DNA of 8,030 nt from JBFJWU01 sp041623475 [NCBI: bacterium] (GTDB taxonomy: Bacteria; J088): NCBI GenBank assembly GCA_041623475.1, contig JBFJWU010000140.1, positions 1 to 8,030 on the forward strand, written 5' to 3'. Every line of letters begins with the position of its first letter. Positions within the stretch are counted from its first letter, which is position 1. Made by a program: the position numbers and the translations under genes. This document shows positions 1 through 8,030 of this stretch, piece by piece. The notes beneath the pieces were generated by a model. That model saw only the letters and a list, made by a program, of their open reading frames with translations. It did not search any database and was not told the DNA's origin.

Positions 1-284
1 GTCACGCCCACATTGCCCGCGTCATCGTAGGCGTAGGCGTTCAACGTATAATCAGTGTCCGCGCCATTCCAGGCCGACGATTCATTCCACGGATCAGTTC
101 CAATCGCCGTAAACAGAAACTCGACCGCTGAACCGAAACCGCCGCCGTCCCAGTAGTTCAAGCCATCAAACAGGCTGACCTGTACGGCCGTAACGGCTCC
201 TGCAGAATCCGAACTGTTACCCGTAATCGATCCCGGGAATGCATTGGCGACCGTCAGGTCGGGTGGCGCGACGATCGACACCGA
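1..284 (-). repeat. Start of super-repeat unit 3: partial A4-type Ig-like module (residues 2583-2676, cut by the window edge)
   Basis: It reads SVSIVAPPDLTVANAFPGSI, TAVQVSLFDGLNYWDGGG, then TDYTLNAYAYDDAGN, where the window ends. It corresponds to modules E and A4, each of which starts a long repeat unit, lying about 3.01 kb from the second and 6.04 kb from the first. The frame is still open at base 3, so the protein continues. An A5-type CxxC module would be expected next if the array goes on. Confidence 0.85.
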
Positions 285-3200
285 CGGTGGCGTCTGGTCC
301 AGGGTGATAGTCGTAACCGCTGCAATACCTGTGTTGCCAATACCGTCACGATACGTAACGTATATGTCCTTGGGTCCTTCGCCACCCGTCACGGTCACCG
401 TAGTCACCCCGGCGTGTGGCTTCCACTGGCCCTCGAACTGTACATCCCCGGTCACTCGAAACTCGGCCTCGGTCGCAGCAAAATTGGCATCCCACGATGA
501 CAGTTGGATTGTCGTCGCCAACGTACTCGTGTACCCCGCCGTAGCTGTCACATAACCCAGTGGACCGACCGAATCGACCGTAAAAATCAGGTTACTGTCC
601 AGCCCTGACTCGGTAAATGCGCCGTCCATCGGTCGCACCGATACAAAATAATCCGCGTCCCCCTGGACAGGTACGACAAAGCTCCAGGTCTCGGTTGCTG
701 GAATCGCATGATCGATTCCTGTGCCGGAGCCAAATCCGACCCCGTCAAACCACATGTTGCTGCCGCTTTGCTGGACCCGGTAGTTGATGAACCGGATGAT
801 TCCGCCGGTTCCATTACTGAGAGGGTCGTAAGCCAACCCGGACATCATCGGCGTCGGGTCAGAGGTGATTTCGCCCGGCGCTGGCGTCACAATCGTCGCG
901 GGACTCGGGGGGGTCAGGTCAACCGACAGGACCGTCGACGTAATCGCTCCCCAGTTGCCCAGCTTGTCCGCCACCTGCAGCTCGAACAGGTGCGACCCCT
1001 CGGTCAGTCCTGATGCGTGGTAGTCCGTAGCATCAGCAACATCAGAGGTAGTGTCCCATGGCCCACCGTTCAGTCGAACCCGTACCATTCCCGCGTCGTT
1101 GCCAAAGCCGAGCACGAAAACCTGCTCTGTAACAGGCGAAAAATTGCGATCCGCGCCCTGCCCAGTGAAAAAGAATACGCTACCCGCGTCGCCAGCCGAA
1201 AAGTCAGCGGTAGGTGCTGCAACGACCAGGTCCCCCACGCCATCATCCACCCTGTCCGGAACCAGTTGCAGGCTGCTGCCAAATGCCGCCGACGAGGGCG
1301 GTCCATCCAGCTTGATATACAACGAACCGTCATCACCGTTCATCGCAAAGACCCGCCCGCTGTCCGTCGCTGAGAAATCATCCGATGGTGCGCCGAACAG
1401 GACTTCGGGGCCATCGCCACCAGTAATATCAAAGCCTCCGCCTATGGCTGTCCCAAACAGGTCACCAGCACCAGCGCCGTCCAGGCGGATCAACTGCCCA
1501 CCGTTAATCCCGGACAGGACATAAAGGCTGCCACTATTCAATCCGTTGAAGTCCGAAAGCGCACCGACAGCAACTTCCGCGACGCCATCCAGGTCACCGT
1601 CCGTGATCACGTCAATCGCAATGGCAAACTGGTCATTGGCGCCTTCACCGTCAATCCGGTAAATCTGCGACGCATCGGTACCTGACATCACGTACAAACT
1701 GCCGCTCTGCATTCCGTTAAAATCGGTCTTCGGCGCACCAATGGCGAAATCGGGAACGCCGTCCCCGTTCATGTCCGGAAGGCCCTTGACAATTGTCCCC
1801 AGTTCGTCCAGGTTCGCGGCACCGGTGACCGTGTGAATGACAGAGCCGTCCACTCCTGACAGCACGTAGGCCGCCCCATTGTCGGTCAGACCAATATTTG
1901 CTGACGGCGCGCCAACAACAAAATCCGGAACATTGTCCAGATCGAGGTCATCAATAACTGAAATCGATGCTCCCAGAAGCGTGTCATCCGTAACACCGTC
2001 CTGACGATAAAGGATCGACCCATCGGTCCCTGACAATGCATAGACACTGCCACGGTTCATCAACGATCCAAAATCTGAATACGGTGCCCCGACAAGGATA
2101 TCGGGCTGACCATCGCCGTTCAGGTCGTCAATCGCGGCAACGGCGCGGCCAAAATAGCCGTTTGCTGCCTCGGCGAGGATCTTGTGCAACAGGGTTCCGT
2201 CGGTACCCGAATGCACATATACCGCACCTGCAAAGGCACCAATCGTGTTTTCCTCGTCCGCACCAATAACGAAATCGGGAACATTGTCGCCATCGAAATC
2301 GTATTTCCGATCAATGGCGCTGCCAAAATTGTCGTTTACTGTCTCCCCGTCGAGGCGAAGGACCTCGGTAAAGGTGGTGACCCAACGCATAAAGGGTGTG
2401 AAAACCTGTGAGGGTTCCCCTGTCTGGTCCAGGTTGATCCAGCTGACCGCATTCGCAAAGTTGCCCGCCGCATCAAAGAAATCCACCGAAACCATTTTTG
2501 GCCCGTCGACCGATGACAGCGTGACCGTTGTTGTCGCTGTCAGTGCCTGGGCAAATCGGGAATCGTCAATGAACCCGGTGATATCAAAGGTAATTGCACC
2601 CGGCGCGGACAGGGCAACGGATATTGTTCTGGTAGATACGGCGTTGGCCCCACCCGCCAGCACAATAGAAACCGGACCGGGGGGCGTCGTATCCAGCGTG
2701 ATCGTATCGCTGTAAATGACAGACATATTCCCCAGGCTGTCGCGATACTCGACGTTGATTGTCTTGGATCCGTCGCCTGCGGTCATCGTCACTGGTTGGT
2801 TGGTACTGTAAGGGACCCAGCCGGTCGGACCGACAATATCGCCTGTATAGCGAGCATCAATCGGACCATTTGAATCCGCGACACCGCTGGACTGGGCATT
2901 GACCAGTACCGTTGCCGCATATGGATAGCTGCCCTGGTTCGGAGTCGCAATCAGGCAGGTTATGCAGGTCGGCGGATCAAAATCGTACGTCACAATGACG
3001 TTGGTAACGGACTGGTTACCCAGCGCATCGGTTGCAATAGCCGTAATCGTATAATCCGTGGAAATTCCGGTGGCCTGAGTCAGGCCTGCATAGGACCAGT
3101 TGTCTGTCCCCGACACCGCAAGTGTCACCGCCGCAAACGTCCAGGACGCACCGTCGAAATACATGGCCCCGTCAAATACCTGGATGCCAACCGAGGTAGT

Positions 3201-6200
3201 ACCGCTGGGCCAGCCACCCGGATCGACTGCGGTCCCATAGACCACGTCGAAACTGCCGTGGGTCGATAGATCAGATGGCGATGTAATCGCCGCAAGCGGG
3301 GCCGCCGTATCCAGCGCGACACCGGTTGCTGACAACGGTCCGATATTACCCAGACCATCACGATATGCCACATAAATGTTCTTGAGGGCGTCACCGACGG
3401 TCAGCGCCACGCTCGTGGTATTCGTCAAGGGGGACCACATTGGTGAACCGTCAACATCCCCCGTGACCTGAAACTCAATCGGAGTCGTCGGAAACGGAAA
3501 ATCACTGGCACCCAGAAGGATCGAAACGGGTGTAACCGCCGAGAATGCTGCGGTTGCGGTCACAAAGCCTGTCGGCCCCTGGCTGTCTACGACAAACGTC
3601 ACCGGAACCGACTGGCCGCTGTTGTTGTAGGCACCGTCCAGCGACACCACATGAACGGTATAACGACCGTCGCCGACGACCGGTGCACTGATCGACCACG
3701 GACCGGTAGACGGCGCGCCAAACTTGCCTGGCTCGGTAACAGCGTAGGACGCTCCGTCCCACCATAACGTGACATCGGTTTCCAGTGATGCCGACCAGCC
3801 GATGCCCTTGATAATGCCTCCGACCCCGTTGGAAATCGGATCGCTTGCCGTGCCGCTGATAACCAGGTCAGCCACAACATTTGTCACAAAACCGGGTGCC
3901 GGGAACGACACCCCGTCGACCTGTGGTGGTGTCAGGTCAATTCCCCACGTAAATGACGTGACCGGTCCCCAGTTGCCCAGCAGGTCAGCAACCTGGAAAT
4001 CAACGGTATGGGTCCCTTCGGTCAGCGGACCAGTCTGGAAATCCTGTGCATCGGCAATGTCTGTCGTCGGCATCCACAGGCCGTTATCCAGGCGCACCTG
4101 CGCGATCGACACGTCAGACACCGGAAAATACAGCGGAAAACGCGCATCGGAAAACTGTGCAAAGACTCGTGGATCGCCAACAGGACTAAGGCTGAAAATC
4201 GCGCCAGCGTCTGTTCCGGCGCTGTCATCGTCTTGCGCGCCAACAATTACCTCTGCGAACCCATCACCGTTCAGGTCAACGTTTTGGCGAGCCAGCCAGG
4301 ACCCCATTTTGGCCTCTGCAACAGTGCCATCGTATCGAAATAACTGGACCCCGGTTTGTCCGTCAAGCACATGCAAGCTGCCCGCGTTACTGCCATTGGT
4401 ATTTGTACGCCGGGCTATCGTAACCACGTCAGGCGTACCATCAAAGTTAAGGTCTTCACCTACTTTAGCGTCGTAACCGAAATGAGCGTTTGCTTCCGGA
4501 CCATCCACAGTCCAGTAAACACTGCGGTCAGATCCGGACAGAACTCGAACTTCGCCACGATCATCAACACCGTGTTTGACCAGCGGCAATAGTATGTCGT
4601 CGGTACCGTCACCGTTGACATCAGGAAAATTGATCGCCCGGACCCTGTTGCTGCCATATGTTTCCGATGCGGGCATGTCAATTCGTTCAATTATCGTTGA
4701 ATCGATCCCGGAAATCACATACAAACTTCCGGAATCGACCGCCGAGAAATCAGTATTCCCGGAGAACGCCAGAATATCCTTGAACCCATCCAGATTGTAA
4801 TCACCGCCACGGGCAACCCAGAACCCCAGGAAATCAGCAGTATTTGCAGCGGGATCGTTGTATTGCCTAATAAACGACCCGGTTTGACCCGAAAATGTCA
4901 TGATTGCGCCGTGGGCGTTGGCGTGAAATCCGTGCGCAGTCGCAACCATATCGTCCACGCCATCGCTGTTAACATCTGGCAACGAGGCGACACTGTAACC
5001 AACGTTCGAGTTGTCGGCACCTGTCGGGTCGTCGCCCTGCACGATCAAGCCACCGGTTACCGCCGAATACGCGTAAACGCTGCCACGACCTGTCGGCGGG
5101 TCATCAGACAGGTATGACCCTGTGACGATGTCCCGGATCCCGTCACCGTCAAAATCACCGTTTGTATCAATATCCTTCCCAAAGAAACCACCAGACACAT
5201 CCGGCCCTGTGATCCGCCAGATTTGTGACCGATCAACCCCGGACAGGACATAGACCGCCCCGCCCGGATTCGCTGAAACGATTGCATTCACTGCGCCTAC
5301 GGCCAGGTCCCGGATACCGTCACCGTTGACATCGTCAACCACAGCAATACTTGAGCCCAGACCTTCACCAGTTACTCCGTTGATTCGCCAGTCCTCAGTA
5401 AGACCGGTTACAAACGTCATAAACGGATGCCGCTCGGAAACCACCGGACCCGTCTGGTCAAGTTCAACCGTATCTGTGACCGTCAGGACGTTGCCCGCCG
5501 CATCGTAGAACCGGACACTGATCGACTTTGTTCCCTCACCGGCAGTCAAGGTCAGGTTGACCTGGCTGGTAAACGGCTGGAACGCCAGCCCCCCCAGGCA
5601 ATTGCAGGTGGAAATCTCGACAAAGGCCGCCTCTGGCGACCACAGATCAACCGCGACCGTGACATCCGACACAGCCGCCACCCCCGCCGCAATGGTTACC
5701 GCCCCCGCCGCAGGCGGTGCCGTGTCCAGGGTAATCAACTCATTGAACGGTCCGGATATGTTGCCGACCACATCCCGGTATTCGACAGACACGGTTTTTG
5801 CCCCGTCGCCAGTGGCAAGGGACACCGAGGTGGACGGCGAATAGGGAATCCAGGTACCGGCGATCCCGTCCGTAATGTTGCCAGTCAGGCGCATGTCAAG
5901 CGGTCCGTTGGGATCCGCCGCTTCCAGCGTTAACGGCACAGCGGCGTTGAAGTTCACAAATGGCCCTGTCGGCCAGTTCAACGTAATACACGTGGTGCAG
6001 GACGGTGGCGTACCATCGTGGGTAAATGTGATTGAGTCCTGGCTGACCAGGCCAACGGCATCATACGCGAACAGATCAACGTTATAGGTTGCGTCGCCCT
6101 CGCCCTCATTCGTCATGTCGAGGTACGTCCACGACGTGGTTCCGGAAACCGGATGGGTCAATGGACTGGCCGAAATAAATCCTCGCCCATCGAAATAGTT

Positions 6201-8030
6201 CGCACCATCAAAGATTCGAATGTATACACCGGCGATTCCCGAACCGGAATCGGACGAGAAACCGTAAATATCCGGCGTCCCGCCGATCAGCGCACCATTG
6301 GTCGGAAACGTGATCGATGCCGTGGGCAATCCCTGGTCCTGTAACATCGTCGTCGATGTAAAAGACAGGTTGCCCGCTGCATCCCAGGCCTTGGCCACAA
6401 TCGTGAAATAGCCGGTCGCCGCAGAGGTTACCGAATCCAGGCTCCAGCTGCCGATGCCGACCGCAGCGTTGATCGTGTAGCCAGGATCGAATGTGAGTCC
6501 ATTCCAGGTAAATCCTGTGGAATCGTCCGTAACGACGATGCCGACGGCCGTAACACCCGACGCAGAGATGCCGGGATCTGATGCCTGGCCTGAAATCGGG
6601 TCAGGTATTGTCTGCAGCAGAACGCCTGGTCCCGGTACGTCGATTTGTACCAGGGGAGCGGTCTGGTCCAGGTTGACGCTGGTCACAGCAGCGGCAACAT
6701 TACCGGCTGCATCATAGAACTGGGCTGTAACGGCACGGGCCCCATCCCCGCTCTCCAGGCTGACTGGAATCGTCGCTGTCGGCAATGATACTGACGTCAA
6801 TGGCGATCCAAGGAACTGTCCAGACACATTGGCTGTTACCGCACCCAACGCGGAAAGATCAAGCCCAACGGATGTCGTCGAAACCGGGTCGACGCCGCCT
6901 GCCAAGGTCAACGTCAGGGCATACGGTGGCATCGTGTCAATCGTCCAACTGGTCGCACCGGGTGTCGGGTCAACATTCCCGGCTGCATCGACTGCACGGA
7001 CCTCAAAAGTGTGGGATCCATCAGCCAGGCCGGAAAAACTGAACGGACTGCTGCACGCGGCAAACGGCAGGTCGTCAATTCGGCATTGGAACGATCCGGC
7101 CTCGGTGCTGCTGAATTGAATCGAACCCGAGTCGATGCTCACCATTCCCGATGGCCCTGTTGACACCGTCGTGTCCGGGGGAACGGTATCGACGATCCAG
7201 TTGAAAACCACAGGACTTGCATCAAGATTTCCAGCCGGGTCGACGGCCAGGATCGTCAGGGAATGAGCCCCTTGTGCAAGACCATTCAAAGTCAATGGGC
7301 TGGTACAGGGTGTCGGCTCAGCTCCGTCCAATCCGCAGACAAACGTCGCCAAGTCGTCATCGGAACTGAACTCAAATGTGGCTGAGTCGGAGCCATTGAT
7401 CGCTGCAGGAGAGGAATCCAATACGGTGTCTGGCGACACATTGTCCGAAAAGGCAGCGGGGATTGTCAGGAACACTTCAGTCAAATCACCCTCGATGACT
7501 GAAATAACCCCGCCAGTGACCTCCTGCCCGTTGGCAACGGCAACAAGTTGCGTCGTCAACGGGTCCAGATAACGGAGGGTCGTTCCAAATGCAGAATCCT
7601 GTGCAAACGTTCCCAGAACCTGCTGGCCGGCTCGTCGCAGGCTGAGCCACACTGGCCCCTCGTATCCATTTCGCTCCAGGTTTACCGTGACATCGCCGCC
7701 GCCAATATCCGCAGGAAGCACCTGCCGGGTAACGACAACATCCAGTTGACCAGAGTCGCCGACGACGGCCGTCCCGTTCAAGCCGCCATCTGATGAGAAC
7801 GCCCAGATCTGGGCCCCGGCAACAGTAATATCCGGTACCGAGATCGAAAACTGGCCCTCGGTCCCGGTTTCTGTACCGATCAGGTCCGGGCCACCGGCAC
7901 GATCCTCGTCCACAGCGCCGACCGCGAACCCGAGTTCCGGGTAGGCCAAAACCATCTTGGCAAATGAAACGGGGTCTCCGGACTCGTCGACGACCGTCCC
8001 CTCGACTTGCCTGGTGGGCAATGCCTGGGA
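1..8030 (-). CDS. Giant multidomain surface/secreted protein with FG-GAP propellers and Ig-like repeats (internal fragment, both ends missing)
   Basis: One reading frame of the reverse complement stays open from base 8030 to base 3 (2676 codons); I translated it line by line and met no stop. It carries recognisable domains along its whole length: a carboxypeptidase-regulatory-like domain, at least 17 Ig-like modules typically ending in an LDxTPP-type linker, and two seven-bladed FG-GAP propellers with DxNxDGxxD calcium loops. I saw no membrane-spanning hydrophobic run and no signal peptide. The protein is very poor in Lys (22) and Cys (10, all in close pairs) and rich in Asp, Gly, Thr, Ser and Val, as in exported adhesins. 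No start can be chosen because the frame enters the window already open. Likely role, by inference: extracellular adhesion or matrix scaffolding. Other possibilities are a phage-like receptor or a sheath component. That the frame is coding is near certain; the cellular role is not. Confidence 0.96.
285..560 (-). other. Ig-like module A3, unit 2 (residues 2491-2582)
   Basis: It begins LGYVTATAGYTSTL, continues AEFRVTGDVQFEG and KDIYVTYRDGIGN, and ends TLDQTPP. It is the same length as its unit 1 counterpart at 3297-3572, with VTATA, F-x-VTGDV and IYVxYRDGxGN as the best-kept segments. Confidence 0.83.
561..905 (-). other. Ig-like module A2, unit 2 (residues 2376-2490)
   Basis: It reads ATIVTPAPGEITSDPTPMMSG, then LAYDPLSNGTGGIIRF, a NMWFDGVGFGSG turn, a TWSFVVPV strand, and DADYFVSVRPMDGAFTESG, ending FTVDSVGP. 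It aligns with the 117-residue module at 3573-3923; the DPxSNGxGGII core is shared. It is 115 residues long. Confidence 0.78.
906..1139 (-). other. Ig-like module A1, after propeller 2 (residues 2298-2375)
   Basis: It reads SPVTEQVFVLGFGNDAG, MVRVRLNGGPWDTT, SGLTEGSHLFELQVADKLGNWG, and ends VDLTPP. It matches the module directly after propeller 1 (VRLDNGGLW, LTEGTHTVDFQVADLLGNWG, IDLTPP). Neither copy has cysteine. Its fixed place after a propeller suggests it packs against the last blade; that is inference. Confidence 0.79.
1140..2363 (-). other. FG-GAP beta-propeller 2, seven blades (residues 1890-2297)
   Basis: Calcium-loop positions are 2274-2300 (DFDGDNVPD), 2100-2126 (DLNGDGQPD), 1923-1949 (DLDLDNVPD), 1749-1775 (DMNGDGVPD), 1575-1601 (DGDLDGVAE), 1404-1430 (DITGGDGPE) and 1230-1256 (DRVDDGVGD), spaced 57-59 residues. 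Most blades show the full FG-GAP grammar: FGxAI/V strand, loop, hydrophobic V-x-GAP, then GS-x-Y-V-L-SG-x-DGS. This is closer to the textbook bacterial integrin-alpha-like repeat than propeller 1. Loops 6 and 7 have lost consensus ligands and blade 5 has FA in place of FG, so calcium binding in the last blades is doubtful. Confidence 0.93.
2412..2678 (-). other. Ig-like module A6, unit 2 (residues 1785-1873)
   Basis: It reads SIVLAGGANAVSTRTISVAL, FDITGFIDDSRFAQ, a GPKMVSVDFFDAAGN strand-turn, and the linker INLDQTGEP before propeller 2. It is close to module C (LAGGVDPVSTTSVGLDLS, FYDAAGN, VNLDQTAP) and to module G of unit 1. The DNA of the linker shares the 16-mer gtctggtccaggttga (plus strand, 2422-2437) with module C (6661-6676). 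Confidence 0.82.
2679..2969 (-). other. Ig-like module A5 with CxxC, unit 2 (residues 1688-1784)
   Basis: It opens TCITCLIATPNQG, then DSNGPIDARYTGDIVGP, a WVPYSTN strand, GDGSKTINVEYRDSLGN and the linker LDTTPP. Length (97 residues) and motif order match module F of unit 1, including the N-terminal C-x-x-C at 2955-2966. It holds the only two cysteines in unit 2. Confidence 0.84.
2970..3296 (-). other. Ig-like module A4, unit 2 (residues 1579-1687)
   Basis: It opens LAAITSPSDLSTHG, carries TSVGIQVFDGAMYFDGASW, SGTDNWSYAGL and TDYTITAIATDALGN, and ends YDFDPP. It matches module E of unit 1 (FDGANYFDG, SGTTSWTYLDM, YNVDLFAYDAVG) and the partial module at the window edge (FDGLNYWDG, TDYTLNAYAYDDAGN). 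Confidence 0.83.
3297..3572 (-). other. Ig-like module A3, unit 1 (residues 1487-1578)
   Basis: It begins TGFVTATAAFS, continues IEFQVTGDVDG and KNIYVAYRDGLGN, and ends ALDTAAP. Aligned without gaps to the A3 module of unit 2 (285-560), both are 92 residues and 39 positions are identical by my count. This gives a direct estimate of divergence between the long repeat units. Confidence 0.83.
3573..3923 (-). other. Ig-like module A2, unit 1 (residues 1370-1486)
   Basis: It reads VSFPAPGFVTN, LVISGTASDPISNGVGGIIK, a TLWWDGASY turn, a GPWSISAPV strand, GRYTVHVVSLDGAYNNSG, and ends FVVDSQGP. The D-P-(I/L)-S-N-G-x-GGII signature recurs in the matching module of unit 2 (561-905). It is the longest of the Ig-like modules at 117 residues. 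Confidence 0.78.
3924..4145 (-). other. Ig-like module A1, after propeller 1 (residues 1296-1369)
   Basis: A short module of 74 residues: VSDVSIAQVRLDNGGLW, PLTEGTHTVDFQVADLLGNWG, then IDLTPP. The G-L/P-L-T-E-G-x-H core followed by V-A-D-x-L-GNWG is repeated after propeller 2. It resembles the B1/B2 repeats (GLADGSHTFEVRAVDAAGN) but lacks their two cysteines, so it is probably the same fold without the disulfide. Confidence 0.78.
4146..5390 (-). other. FG-GAP beta-propeller 1, seven blades (residues 881-1295)
   Basis: Seven calcium-loop motifs occur at 5307-5333 (DVNGDGIRD), 5130-5156 (DFDGDGIRD), 4950-4976 (DVNSDGVDD), 4776-4802 (DYNLDGFKD), 4596-4622 (DVNGDGTDD), 4428-4454 (DLNFDGTPD) and 4251-4277 (DLNGDGFAE). 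They are spaced 56-60 residues apart. Each is preceded by a G-containing FG-type strand (such as GGFFGKDID or AHFGYDAK) and followed by a hydrophobic GAP-type strand and a G-x-(V/L)-x-V-L/x-S-G strand. Seven blades is the number that closes the integrin-alpha N-terminal propeller. All seven loops keep their acidic ligands, so this copy should bind calcium. The entry is preceded by HPFMTFVTGLTED, which resembles the entry to propeller 2. Confidence 0.92.
5445..5711 (-). other. Ig-like module G, A6 type with CxC, unit 1 (residues 774-862)
   Basis: It reads AVTIAAGVAAVSDVTVAVDL, then a VEISTCNCLGG segment, LTLTAGEGTKSISVRFYDAAGN, and the linker ELDQTGP before propeller 1. The Cys-Asn-Cys in the middle is peculiar to this copy: the corresponding place in unit 2 (near 2560-2575) reads DITGFIDDSRF with no cysteine. 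This module always precedes a propeller. Confidence 0.82.
5712..6002 (-). other. Ig-like module F, A5 type with CxxC, unit 1 (residues 677-773)
   Basis: It opens with SCTTCITLNWPTG straight after the PP linker, then NGPLDMRLTGNITDG, a WIPYSPS strand, GDGAKTVSVEYRDVVGN and the linker LDTAPP. It has the same length (97 residues) and order of motifs as the A5 module at 2679-2969. The C-x-x-C at its first residues is conserved in both units, which suggests a small disulfide at the module junction. Metal binding is a less likely alternative. Confidence 0.83.
6003..6323 (-). other. Ig-like module E, A4 type, unit 1 (residues 570-676)
   Basis: It starts TASITFPTNGALIGGTPDIYG, has SGIAGVYIRIFDGANYFDG as its central turn, a TSWTYLDM strand and a YNVDLFAYDAVG strand, and ends HDGTPP. 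The IFDGxxYFDG signature recurs in the equivalent places of units 2 and 3 (about 3152-3178 and 142-168). This is a beta-sandwich spacer of the kind common in large bacterial surface proteins. Confidence 0.82.
6324..6653 (-). other. Ig-like module D, FxWNG type (residues 460-569)
   Basis: The module reads VQIDVPGPG, DPISGQASDPG, VGIVVTDDSTGFTWNGLTFD, a SWSLDSV strand, then YFTIVAKAWDAAGN and the linker QDQGLP. The aromatic-x-x-W/F-D/N-G turn followed by a W-x-L/Y strand and A-x-D-x-x-GN is shared with the A4-type modules. It belongs to the same broad bacterial Ig-like class but is more divergent than the three A4 copies. It lies just upstream, on the protein, of the first full long repeat. Confidence 0.75.
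6654..6923 (-). other. Ig-like module C, A6 type (residues 370-459)
   Basis: It contains LTLAGGVDPVSTTSVGLDLS, a GDGARAVTAQFYDAAGN strand-turn, and the terminal linker VNLDQTAP. It is clearly related to the module that precedes each propeller: compare LAGGANAVSTRTISVALS at about 2580-2665 and RFYDAAGN in module G. Its presence here, two modules before the long repeat begins, shows that the A6 type was also used outside the regular array. Confidence 0.8.
6924..7175 (-). other. Ig-like repeat B2 with cysteine pair (residues 286-369)
   Basis: Second copy of the cysteine-bearing repeat: DTTVSTGPSG, FSSTEAGSFQCRID, AACSSPFSFSGL, then DGSHTFEVRAVDAAGN and the linker WTIDTMPP. Its cysteines are residues 316 and 326, the same spacing as in copy B1 (232 and 242), which supports a conserved disulfide. 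It fits the consensus more closely than B1, as shown by SSTEAGSF and AVDAAGNVDPTP. Confidence 0.88.
7176..7436 (-). other. Ig-like repeat B1 with cysteine pair (residues 199-285)
   Basis: It begins SPDTVLDSSP, continues TFEFSSDDD and a C-G-L-D-G segment, and reaches a second Cys ten residues later (residues 232 and 242). It then reads LNGLAQGAHSLTILAVDPAGN and ends DTVPP. This is the common bacterial repeat 'PDT..dsgPs......F.F.s.e....F.C.LDG....C.SP....gL..GsHtf.vrA.D.aGN.d', whose two cysteines are expected to form a disulfide. It is followed directly by a second copy. Confidence 0.85.
7449..7727 (-). other. Beta-rich region of unassigned family (residues ~102-194)
   Basis: This stretch alternates hydrophobic and polar residues (VTVNLERNGYEGPVWLSLRR, then TQLVAVANGQEV, then TEVFLTIP) and has no helical or coiled-coil character. 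The motif V-W-L-S-L-R-R-A-G-x-x-V suggests another beta-sandwich. I do not recognise a family. It sits between the carboxypeptidase-regulatory-like domain and the first Ig-like repeat, so it may be a non-repetitive part of the N-terminal region. Confidence 0.5.
7731..8012 (-). other. Carboxypeptidase-regulatory-like beta-sandwich domain (residues ~7-100)
   Basis: Residues 9-24 read VEGTVVDESGDPVSFA, followed by a hydrophobic strand, then TEGQFSISVP near residues 57-66 and a strand around QIWAFSSDG. The pattern G-x-V-x-D-x-x-G-x-P-(hydrophobic)-x-x-A, then T-x-x-G-x-F-x-(hydrophobic)-x-V-P, is the hallmark of CarboxypepD_reg/CNA-B-like folds. These serve as spacer or stability domains in secreted proteins and at the front of TonB-dependent receptors. 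Here it precedes Ig-like modules, which favours a spacer in an extracellular stalk. It may not be the first domain, since the protein continues beyond the window edge. Confidence 0.72.

What the first reader, a model, noticed from the sequence alone, without database searches (positions are those of the whole stretch)
1..6323. A ~3.03 kb super-repeat: seven ordered modules including a whole propeller, repeated in tandem
The order A4-A5-A6-propeller-A1-A2-A3 occurs twice in full and begins a third time. Equivalent module boundaries are offset by 3006-3033 bases throughout. Single Ig-like domains commonly repeat in adhesins, but repetition of a roughly 1010-residue block that contains a complete seven-bladed propeller is unusual. 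It implies beads (propellers) at regular intervals on a stalk. Divergence (39 of 92 identical in A3) shows the order has been kept over long evolution.
Basis: seen in the sequence. Interest (0 to 1): 0.72.

Follow-up and report, generated by a model that had tools for sequence, protein, structure and literature searches.

The report
Giant bacterial protein with repeated propellers
This stretch encodes part of one giant, very acidic bacterial protein in which a seven-module block, six immunoglobulin-like domains plus one integrin-like propeller, is repeated in the same order, most likely a long surface or matrix fibre that shows propellers at regular steps; it is an uncommon build made from known parts.

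Summary
The window is one uninterrupted minus-strand frame of 2676 residues, open at both ends. Residues 565-1573 and 1574-2577 are two copies of an ordered block: three Ig-like modules, a seven-bladed FG-GAP propeller, three more Ig-like modules. A third copy starts at 2578. The copies are 37.9% identical over 987 aligned residues, offset 1004-1011 residues, far above shuffled controls. Four of six Ig-like module types pair strictly by position in a 17-module tree. Types D and F group with one extra upstream copy each, and F2 is nearer to that copy than to F1. The Pr1 model has the integrin-alpha propeller fold. Whether the propellers were copied with the block is unresolved.

Such blocks are not unique: an unrelated 4837-residue protein repeats a propeller plus four other Ig-like modules (53% identical). 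D/E/F arrays without a propeller, and propellers followed by E/F modules, also exist. No orthologue was found, so 'order kept over long evolution' is untested. Best reading: a giant, calcium-stiffened surface or matrix adhesin that displays propellers repeatedly.

The parts
7446..8030 (-). N-terminal part in the window (res 1-195), weak carboxypeptidase-regulatory-like match; frame open upstream
   Evidence: Pfam PF13620 E 0.0021, below its cut-off
6939..7445 (-). n1, n2 (res 196-364): OmpL47-type / Big_13 Ig-like modules with Cys pairs
   Evidence: 17 of 400 genomes of the phylum of G003 match around here (residues 162-510)
6669..6938 (-). n3 (res 365-454): extra F-type module upstream of unit 1
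   Evidence: best match F2 40/88; groups with F1, F2
6339..6668 (-). n4 (res 455-564): D-like module upstream of unit 1
   Evidence: best match D3; groups with D1-D3
6018..6338 (-).
5727..6017 (-). E1 (A5), with CxxC
   Evidence: E1-E2 42/95; Cys 678/681
5460..5726 (-). F1 (A6)
4191..5459 (-). Propeller 1 (res 858-1280): seven FG-GAP blades, seven Dx[DN]xDG calcium loops
   Evidence: integrin-like fold
3939..4190 (-). Y1 (A1)
   Evidence: Y1-Y2 34/80; 100/99
3588..3938 (-). B1 (A2)
   Evidence: B1-B2 44/115; 98/92
3312..3587 (-). C1 (A3), end of unit 1
   Evidence: C1-C2 41/92; 98/93
2985..3311 (-). D2, start of unit 2
2694..2984 (-). E2, with CxxC at the same place as E1
2430..2693 (-). F2
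1161..2429 (-). Propeller 2 (res 1868-2290): seven blades; three strict calcium loops, two with DN for DG, blades 6 and 7 degenerate
921..1160 (-). Y2
576..920 (-). B2
300..575 (-). C2, end of unit 2
3..299 (-). D3 (cut by the window end), start of unit 3
   Evidence: D1-D3 36/98

Best explanation
A fragment of a giant secreted or cell-surface bacterial protein whose body grew by nested duplication. An early long-short pair of Ig-like modules was doubled (B-C and D-E), then a block of six Ig-like modules with one propeller (order D-E-F-propeller-Y-B-C) was copied in tandem. The Ig-like modules form a stalk. Integrin-type, calcium-loaded FG-GAP propellers sit in it about every 1000 residues as bulky binding heads, giving the cell or its matrix several evenly spaced, low-affinity binding sites (avidity) for glycans or proteins. 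Shown: frame, block order, pairing by position for four of six Ig-like types, seven blades, integrin-like fold of Pr1 (model), acidic make-up. Inferred: secretion, stalk shape, spacing (about 25-30 nm from the usual size of Ig domains, recalled), ligand binding and adhesion.
For: Off-diagonal alignment at 1004-1011 residues; 37.9% identity over 987 aligned residues of units 1 and 2; module tree by position. C with E (98/97), C, E and F with n3 as one class (99/96), and B with the D types (85/85, unresolved inside) point to an older nested duplication. The joint before the propeller is alike in both units (14 of 32 residues identical without gaps), so the propeller sits at the same place. Seven blades each. 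All 28 PDB sequences matched are integrin alpha chains. The Pr1 model aligns to integrin alpha-M with Z 35.8, rmsd 3.3, 371 residues. Net charge -231, K 0.8%, D 9.4%, and strict calcium loops in seven of seven blades of Pr1, fit an extracellular calcium-binding protein. Some relatives of the D/E/F modules lie in giant frames (4712 and 4713 aa); the one I read in full has an N-terminal signal-like stretch (my reading).
Against: Neither end of the protein is in the window, so no signal peptide, anchor or secretion signal was seen. No ligand, neighbour gene or orthologue is known. Blades of the two propellers do not pair by position (mean Z 7.7 at register 0 against 5.9-9.4 at other registers). 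The propeller tree does not recover Pr1+Pr2, although it does not reject it (p-AU 0.406), so the propeller may not have been copied with the block. F2 is nearer n3 than F1, and the smaller C/E/F tree leaves E1 and E2 unjoined. Pr2 keeps only three of seven strict calcium loops. For Y1-F2 only Big_13 passes its Pfam cut-off (36.7 against 27 bits); the Ig-like fold of the other modules rests on sub-threshold matches and a nearly all-strand but low-confidence model.
Confidence: 0.6

Rival explanations
1. The propellers were gained or exchanged separately: an Ig-like array was duplicated, and propellers of the common single-propeller FG-GAP family replaced or re-amplified the old ones, so only the Ig-like frame is a true super-repeat.
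For: Pr1 scores higher with six of 14 outside propellers (540-412 raw) than with Pr2 (393), and Pr2 higher with eleven of 14 (669-453) than with Pr1. No blade register between Pr1 and Pr2, while the control pair G013A/B has one (21.4 against 10.4-13.2), and Pr2 shows one with outside propeller L033 (13.3 against 8.7-11.1). Pr2 blades are more alike among themselves (mean Z 11.6) than Pr1 blades (5.8).
Against: Most outside propellers were picked for likeness to Pr2, and Pr1 and Pr2 are the two longest end branches, which alone can give these ranks. Register is faint among outside propellers too: of five pairs tested, register 0 leads in three by at most 0.3 and is not the best in two, so the test has little power. 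The joint sequence (14 of 32) and module Y accompany both propellers. Sisterhood is not rejected.
Confidence: 0.25
2. A structural matrix or sheath protein (S-layer-like or biofilm fibre) in which propellers are calcium-dependent spacers or cross-links between fibres, not ligand-binding heads.
For: Very acidic, calcium loops, repeated order; fixed super-repeats in titin go with scaffolding (PMC10665226, abstract and outline only).
Against: Nothing in the window speaks for self-assembly.
Confidence: 0.25
3. Mostly neutral growth of a giant gene by recombination; the order is a leftover of one duplication and has no function of its own.
For: Only two full copies are seen; relatives of the modules occur in loose orders; F2/n3 likeness suggests further shuffling.
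Against: Frame intact over 8 kb; module types, propeller joint and the E-module CxxC kept at 62% divergence, with saturated synonymous codons.
Confidence: 0.15
4. Assembly artefact: one unit collapsed or copied by mis-assembly.
For: Both ends of the window are cut inside the frame.
Against: The copies share almost no DNA identity (three short blastn matches) and no codon memory.
Confidence: 0.01

Closest known systems
Bacterial integrin-type FG-GAP seven-bladed propellers (PMC3192720)
   Same: Seven FG-GAP blades, calcium loop in each blade of Pr1; two sets of seven repeats in one protein are already reported there
   Different: Here the propellers are separated by six ordered Ig-like modules and lie inside a 1010-residue repeat; the paper's double sets are called closely spaced; Pr2 keeps three of seven strict calcium loops
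   Same: Propeller plus Ig-like stalk copied in tandem (offset 768, 53% identical over 743 aligned)
   Different: Four modules of about 84 residues (my reading of the sequence) of another class; the module profiles of the window find nothing in its stalk at E 1e-3
Giant D/E/F-type Ig arrays, e.g. G1070:C70 (4712 aa)
   Same: Long (D) and short (E, F) modules in mixed succession
   Different: No propeller blade found, no fixed order
Propeller followed by E/F modules in G548 (L049, L053)
   Same: FG-GAP propeller joined to E/F-type modules in one protein
   Different: One propeller seen (seven blades in L049; five in L053, whose locus starts inside the frame), few modules, no super-repeat
Titin A-band super-repeats (PMC10665226, abstract and outline read)
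   Same: Fixed order of domain types repeated as a larger unit, conservation by position
   Different: Muscle protein of Ig and FnIII domains; no propeller that I recall; homology not claimed
Giant bacterial adhesins: MpAFP, Bap (PMC4083281, PMC4647330; search listing only)
   Same: Long arrays of Ig-like modules; ice binding, biofilm and host adhesion
   Different: Repeats of about 80-110 residues; the listing mentions no propeller

Membership tests
Integrin-type FG-GAP beta-propeller | Seven FG-GAP blades in a row | tested here: met
   Seven blades each in Pr1 and Pr2 by a profile built from them; Pfam FG-GAP 106.4 bits with seven stretches in Pr1, 99.2 bits with five in Pr2, cut-off 22.1
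Integrin-type FG-GAP beta-propeller | Calcium motif of Dx[DN]xDG type in every blade (bacterial examples) | tested here: inconclusive
   Pr1 7 of 7: met. Pr2 3 of 7 strict and two with DN for DG: not met
Integrin-type FG-GAP beta-propeller | Integrin-alpha propeller fold | tested here: met
   Model of F1-Pr1-Y1, propeller blocks at pLDDT 53-91; best Z 35.8, rmsd 3.3, 371 aligned to integrin alpha-M. Pr2 was not modelled
Integrin alpha subunit | Pairing with a beta subunit, transmembrane anchor | not testable with these tools
   Protein ends lie outside the window; no claim of membership
OmpL47-type / Big_13 Ig-like modules | Score over curated cut-off | tested here: met
   Big_13 72.3 bits (cut-off 27); NF047446 58.7 (cut-off 40); best stretches at residues 334-366 and 315-355, about n2; for Y1-F2 alone Big_13 36.7
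Leptospiral OmpL47 (NF047441) | Score over curated cut-off | tested here: not met
   54.9 of 250 bits
Large type I-secreted (RTX/Bap-like) adhesins | C-terminal export signal and N-terminal retention module (recalled) | not testable with these tools
   Both ends of the gene lie outside the window and no genome is held
Titin-like super-repeat organisation | Domains in equal positions of successive units are closest relatives: types Y, B, C, E | tested here: met
   Mutual best matches; joined in the 17-module tree, though E1 and E2 are not joined with support in the 7-module tree
Titin-like super-repeat organisation | The same for types D, F and the propeller | tested here: inconclusive
   D1-D3 and F1, F2 group with n4 and n3, unresolved inside; F2 nearest to n3; propellers unresolved

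The most novel reading that the evidence does not exclude
A bacterial, titin-like ruler: a fibre whose seven-module unit is the working piece, each position with its own job, so that integrin-like propellers are held at fixed distances along the cell surface or matrix, and the unit count sets reach and valency.
Probability: 0.25. Interest if true: 0.68.

Novelty: new variant of a known kind. Interest (0 to 1): 0.45.

Why it matters
If the order is functional, this is a bacterial case of super-repeat design like that of titin, with a whole propeller inside the unit, and a handle on what integrin-type propellers do in bacteria, which PMC3192720 leaves open (passages). The differently built block in G013 suggests that spaced propellers on Ig-like stalks arose more than once.

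Tried and rejected
Searches for close relatives gave none: single-protein scans of genome contigs and viral contigs (0 relatives among 309 and 1 matched stretches), profile scans of viral contigs (0 among 28 and 39), profile scan of genome contigs (8 of 103 stretches, distant), tblastn in plasmids (6 records) and phages (1 record), none with one place covering 80% of the query. Whole protein in the 8 genomes behind those loci: 4 of 8 (E <= 1e-5); in the phylum of G001: 5 of 19 (E <= 1e-15). Whole-genome searches with the Ig-like part Y1-F2 (E <= 1e-8): 7 of 294, 1 of 5, 4 of 167, 6 of 400, 5 of 296, 3 of 18. Some of these sets overlap, only a few candidates per genome were scored in the large searches, and the window's own phylum is unknown, so absence is weak. 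With the whole protein, the listed matches in the phylum of G003 fall on residues 162-510 only (17 of 400). With residues 565-2676, 70 of 294 genomes in the phylum of G007 match; of the rows listed (the list is cut) all but two fall on Pr2, two on Pr1.

Blade-by-blade pairing as a test of joint duplication: no register, but it is faint in outside propellers too, so inconclusive. Propeller tree: weak, long branches. Stalk model discarded (pLDDT 40). Alignment A3 was useless because its rows did not align. Rfam scan: nothing. Tandem-repeat scan: nothing, but its longest period is 500. Beta-propeller families other than FG-GAP called in the later part of L018 were not followed up. The first blastp self-search printed nothing; I replaced it by my own offset scan, and the gapped part of that script found only the main diagonal, redone.

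Literature (open-licence PMC text only): FG-GAP with Ig-like, giant and bacterial: 0 papers; FG-GAP with giant genes: 0; propeller, Ig-like domains, adhesin, stalk, tandem: 1, on complement receptors; one search returned only PMC3192720; two searches found 15 and 48 papers (15 and 20 listed), of which I opened only PMC3192720; (titin) listed 8 of 50, of which I opened PMC10665226.

Full report
What is there. The 8030-base window is coding throughout on the minus strand: one frame of 2676 residues, open at both ends. No genome is held for it, so source and gene ends are unknown. G+C is 57%. The protein is very acidic (net charge -231 from D, E, K and R; K 0.8%, D 9.4%).

The repeat. An ungapped offset scan gives its strongest 15-residue band at 1005-1019, with peaks at 1011 and 1004; the next bands, 105-119 and 45-59, fit two blades and one (the single offset 58 is the highest of all). 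A gapped local alignment of the two halves scores 1032, against a maximum of 113 in 30 shuffles. Unit 1 (residues 565-1573, bases 3312-6338) and unit 2 (1574-2577, bases 300-3311) align over 987 residues with 374 identities (37.9%). Unit 3 starts at 2578 and is cut by the window. Among the identical residues 126 of 366 (Met and Trp left out) use the same codon, 130.4 being expected from codon usage: synonymous change is saturated and there is no sign of recent gene conversion.

Pairing by position. Of 17 Ig-like modules compared all against all, Y, B, C and E are each other's best match across units; D1 and D2 are each other's best and D3's best is D1; F2's best match is n3 (40/88), an F-type module upstream of unit 1, ahead of F1 (31/87). 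A maximum-likelihood tree of the 17 modules joins Y1+Y2 (100/99), B1+B2 (98/92), C1+C2 (98/93) and E1+E2 (90/86); D and F groups are unresolved inside. In a tree of the seven C, E, F and n3 modules E1+E2 is not recovered with support, and the six-module B/D tree joins B1+B2 (98/94) with a warning on long branches (all). C groups with E (98/97), C, E, F and n3 form one class (99/96), and B groups with the D types (85/85), so B-C and D-E look like copies of an older long-short pair: the block is itself built by nested duplication (inference).

Upstream edge. The period does not continue upstream of D1. Residues 196-364 are two OmpL47-type/Big_13 modules, then n3 (F-type) and n4 (D-like); n1 and n2 fall in one group with Y1 and Y2 (93/92). 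Residues 1-195 have only sub-threshold matches, the best to a carboxypeptidase-regulatory domain.

The propellers. A blade profile built from the window's own blades finds 7+7 blades; Pfam FG-GAP gives seven stretches in Pr1 and five in Pr2. All 28 PDB sequences matched are integrin alpha chains. The F1-Pr1-Y1 model (mean pLDDT 62; ten-residue blocks of the propeller 53-91, of F1 24-36) matches integrin headpieces by Foldseek (best E 2.6e-13) and by VIA-align (Z 35.8, rmsd 3.3, 371 residues). Pr1 has strict Dx[DN]xDG loops in seven of seven blades; Pr2 in three of seven, two more with DN for DG, blades 6 and 7 degenerate. The joint before both propellers is alike (14 of 32 residues).

Was the propeller copied with the block? 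Pr1 and Pr2 are 35% identical (143/408), near the Ig-like modules' level, and sit at the same joint. But blades do not pair by position (mean Z 7.7 at register 0, 5.9-9.4 elsewhere), whereas G013's two propellers do (21.4 against 10.4-13.2), and Pr2 does with the outside propeller L033 (13.3 against 8.7-11.1). Of Pr2 with L034, register 0 is best by 0.5; with L037b, L035 and L042 it is not best. Among outside propellers register is faint: of five pairs, register 0 leads in three by at most 0.3 and is not best in two. So the test has little power. Pr1 scores higher with six, and Pr2 with eleven, of 14 outside propellers than with each other; most of those had been chosen for likeness to Pr2. 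The tree leaves both as long branches, and holding them together costs 0.66 log-likelihood units (p-AU 0.406). Unresolved; I lean to joint duplication because of the joint.

Relatives. No protein with this unit was found (list in Tried and rejected). Parts occur elsewhere: (a) G013:C27, a 4837-residue protein: propeller, about four 84-residue modules, propeller, then many more such modules, with residues 28-780 matching 796-1545 at 53% over 743 aligned, a differently built propeller-bearing repeat; (b) G1070:C70, 4712 residues, 27 places matched by the D, E, F or B profiles in loose order and no blade; (c) G548, two frames with a propeller followed by E/F modules, the only two with both kinds among 445 frames of 83 loci, of which 85 had any hit, 70 a module and 17 a blade (some frames overlap, and the loci are the ones fetched here, not a sample); (d) L037 with 14 blades in a row; (e) one-propeller proteins: nine of the ten loci L033-L042 fetched from the phylum of G007 have seven blades.

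Reading. I think the protein is a giant surface or matrix protein: an Ig-like stalk with calcium-loaded integrin-like propellers as repeated heads, acting by avidity. Shown: architecture, fold of Pr1 (model), divergence. Inferred: export, stalk shape, spacing, adhesion. Precedents: tandem integrin-type propellers in bacteria (PMC3192720: abstract, section 9 part 1 and passages read), whose function that paper calls unknown and whose role it would confine to the cytoplasm; long Ig-like adhesins (PMC4083281, PMC4647330: search listing); titin super-repeats (PMC10665226: abstract and outline). I file the window as a new variant of a known kind: known domains and known gigantism, with an uncommon unit.

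Checking round. After the recount I corrected the calcium-loop and joint counts, noted the limit of the tandem-repeat scan, and added results against my reading (register of Pr2 with L033, the smaller tree without E1+E2, Pfam's five stretches in Pr2).

Noticed in passing
window 5727-6017 and 2694-2984: Module E carries a CxxC at the same place in both units; the 2676 residues hold only 10 Cys. It may be a disulphide mark of this position.
   Followed up: partly
window 300-575 and 3-299: Phage protein family phrog_10898 (function unknown) matches with E 1.7e-33, best stretch residues 2494-2590 (C2-D3), four stretches.
   Followed up: no
window 1161-2429 against 4191-5459: Blades of propeller 2 are far more alike among themselves (mean Z 11.6) than those of propeller 1 (5.8), as if re-amplified or slower to change.
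   Followed up: partly
L011:4779-6404: Synechococcus phage B23 protein annotated as flagellar hook-length control protein lies in a frame with seven FG-GAP-type blades by the blade profile; the annotation looks wrong.
   Followed up: no
L018:1-14511: 4837-aa protein with its own propeller-plus-four-module tandem block and a long run of 84-residue modules.
   Followed up: partly
L073/L074 (G1070:C70 8947-23082): 4712-aa giant with D/E/F modules, then other repeat types at the C-terminal end; no blade found.
   Followed up: partly
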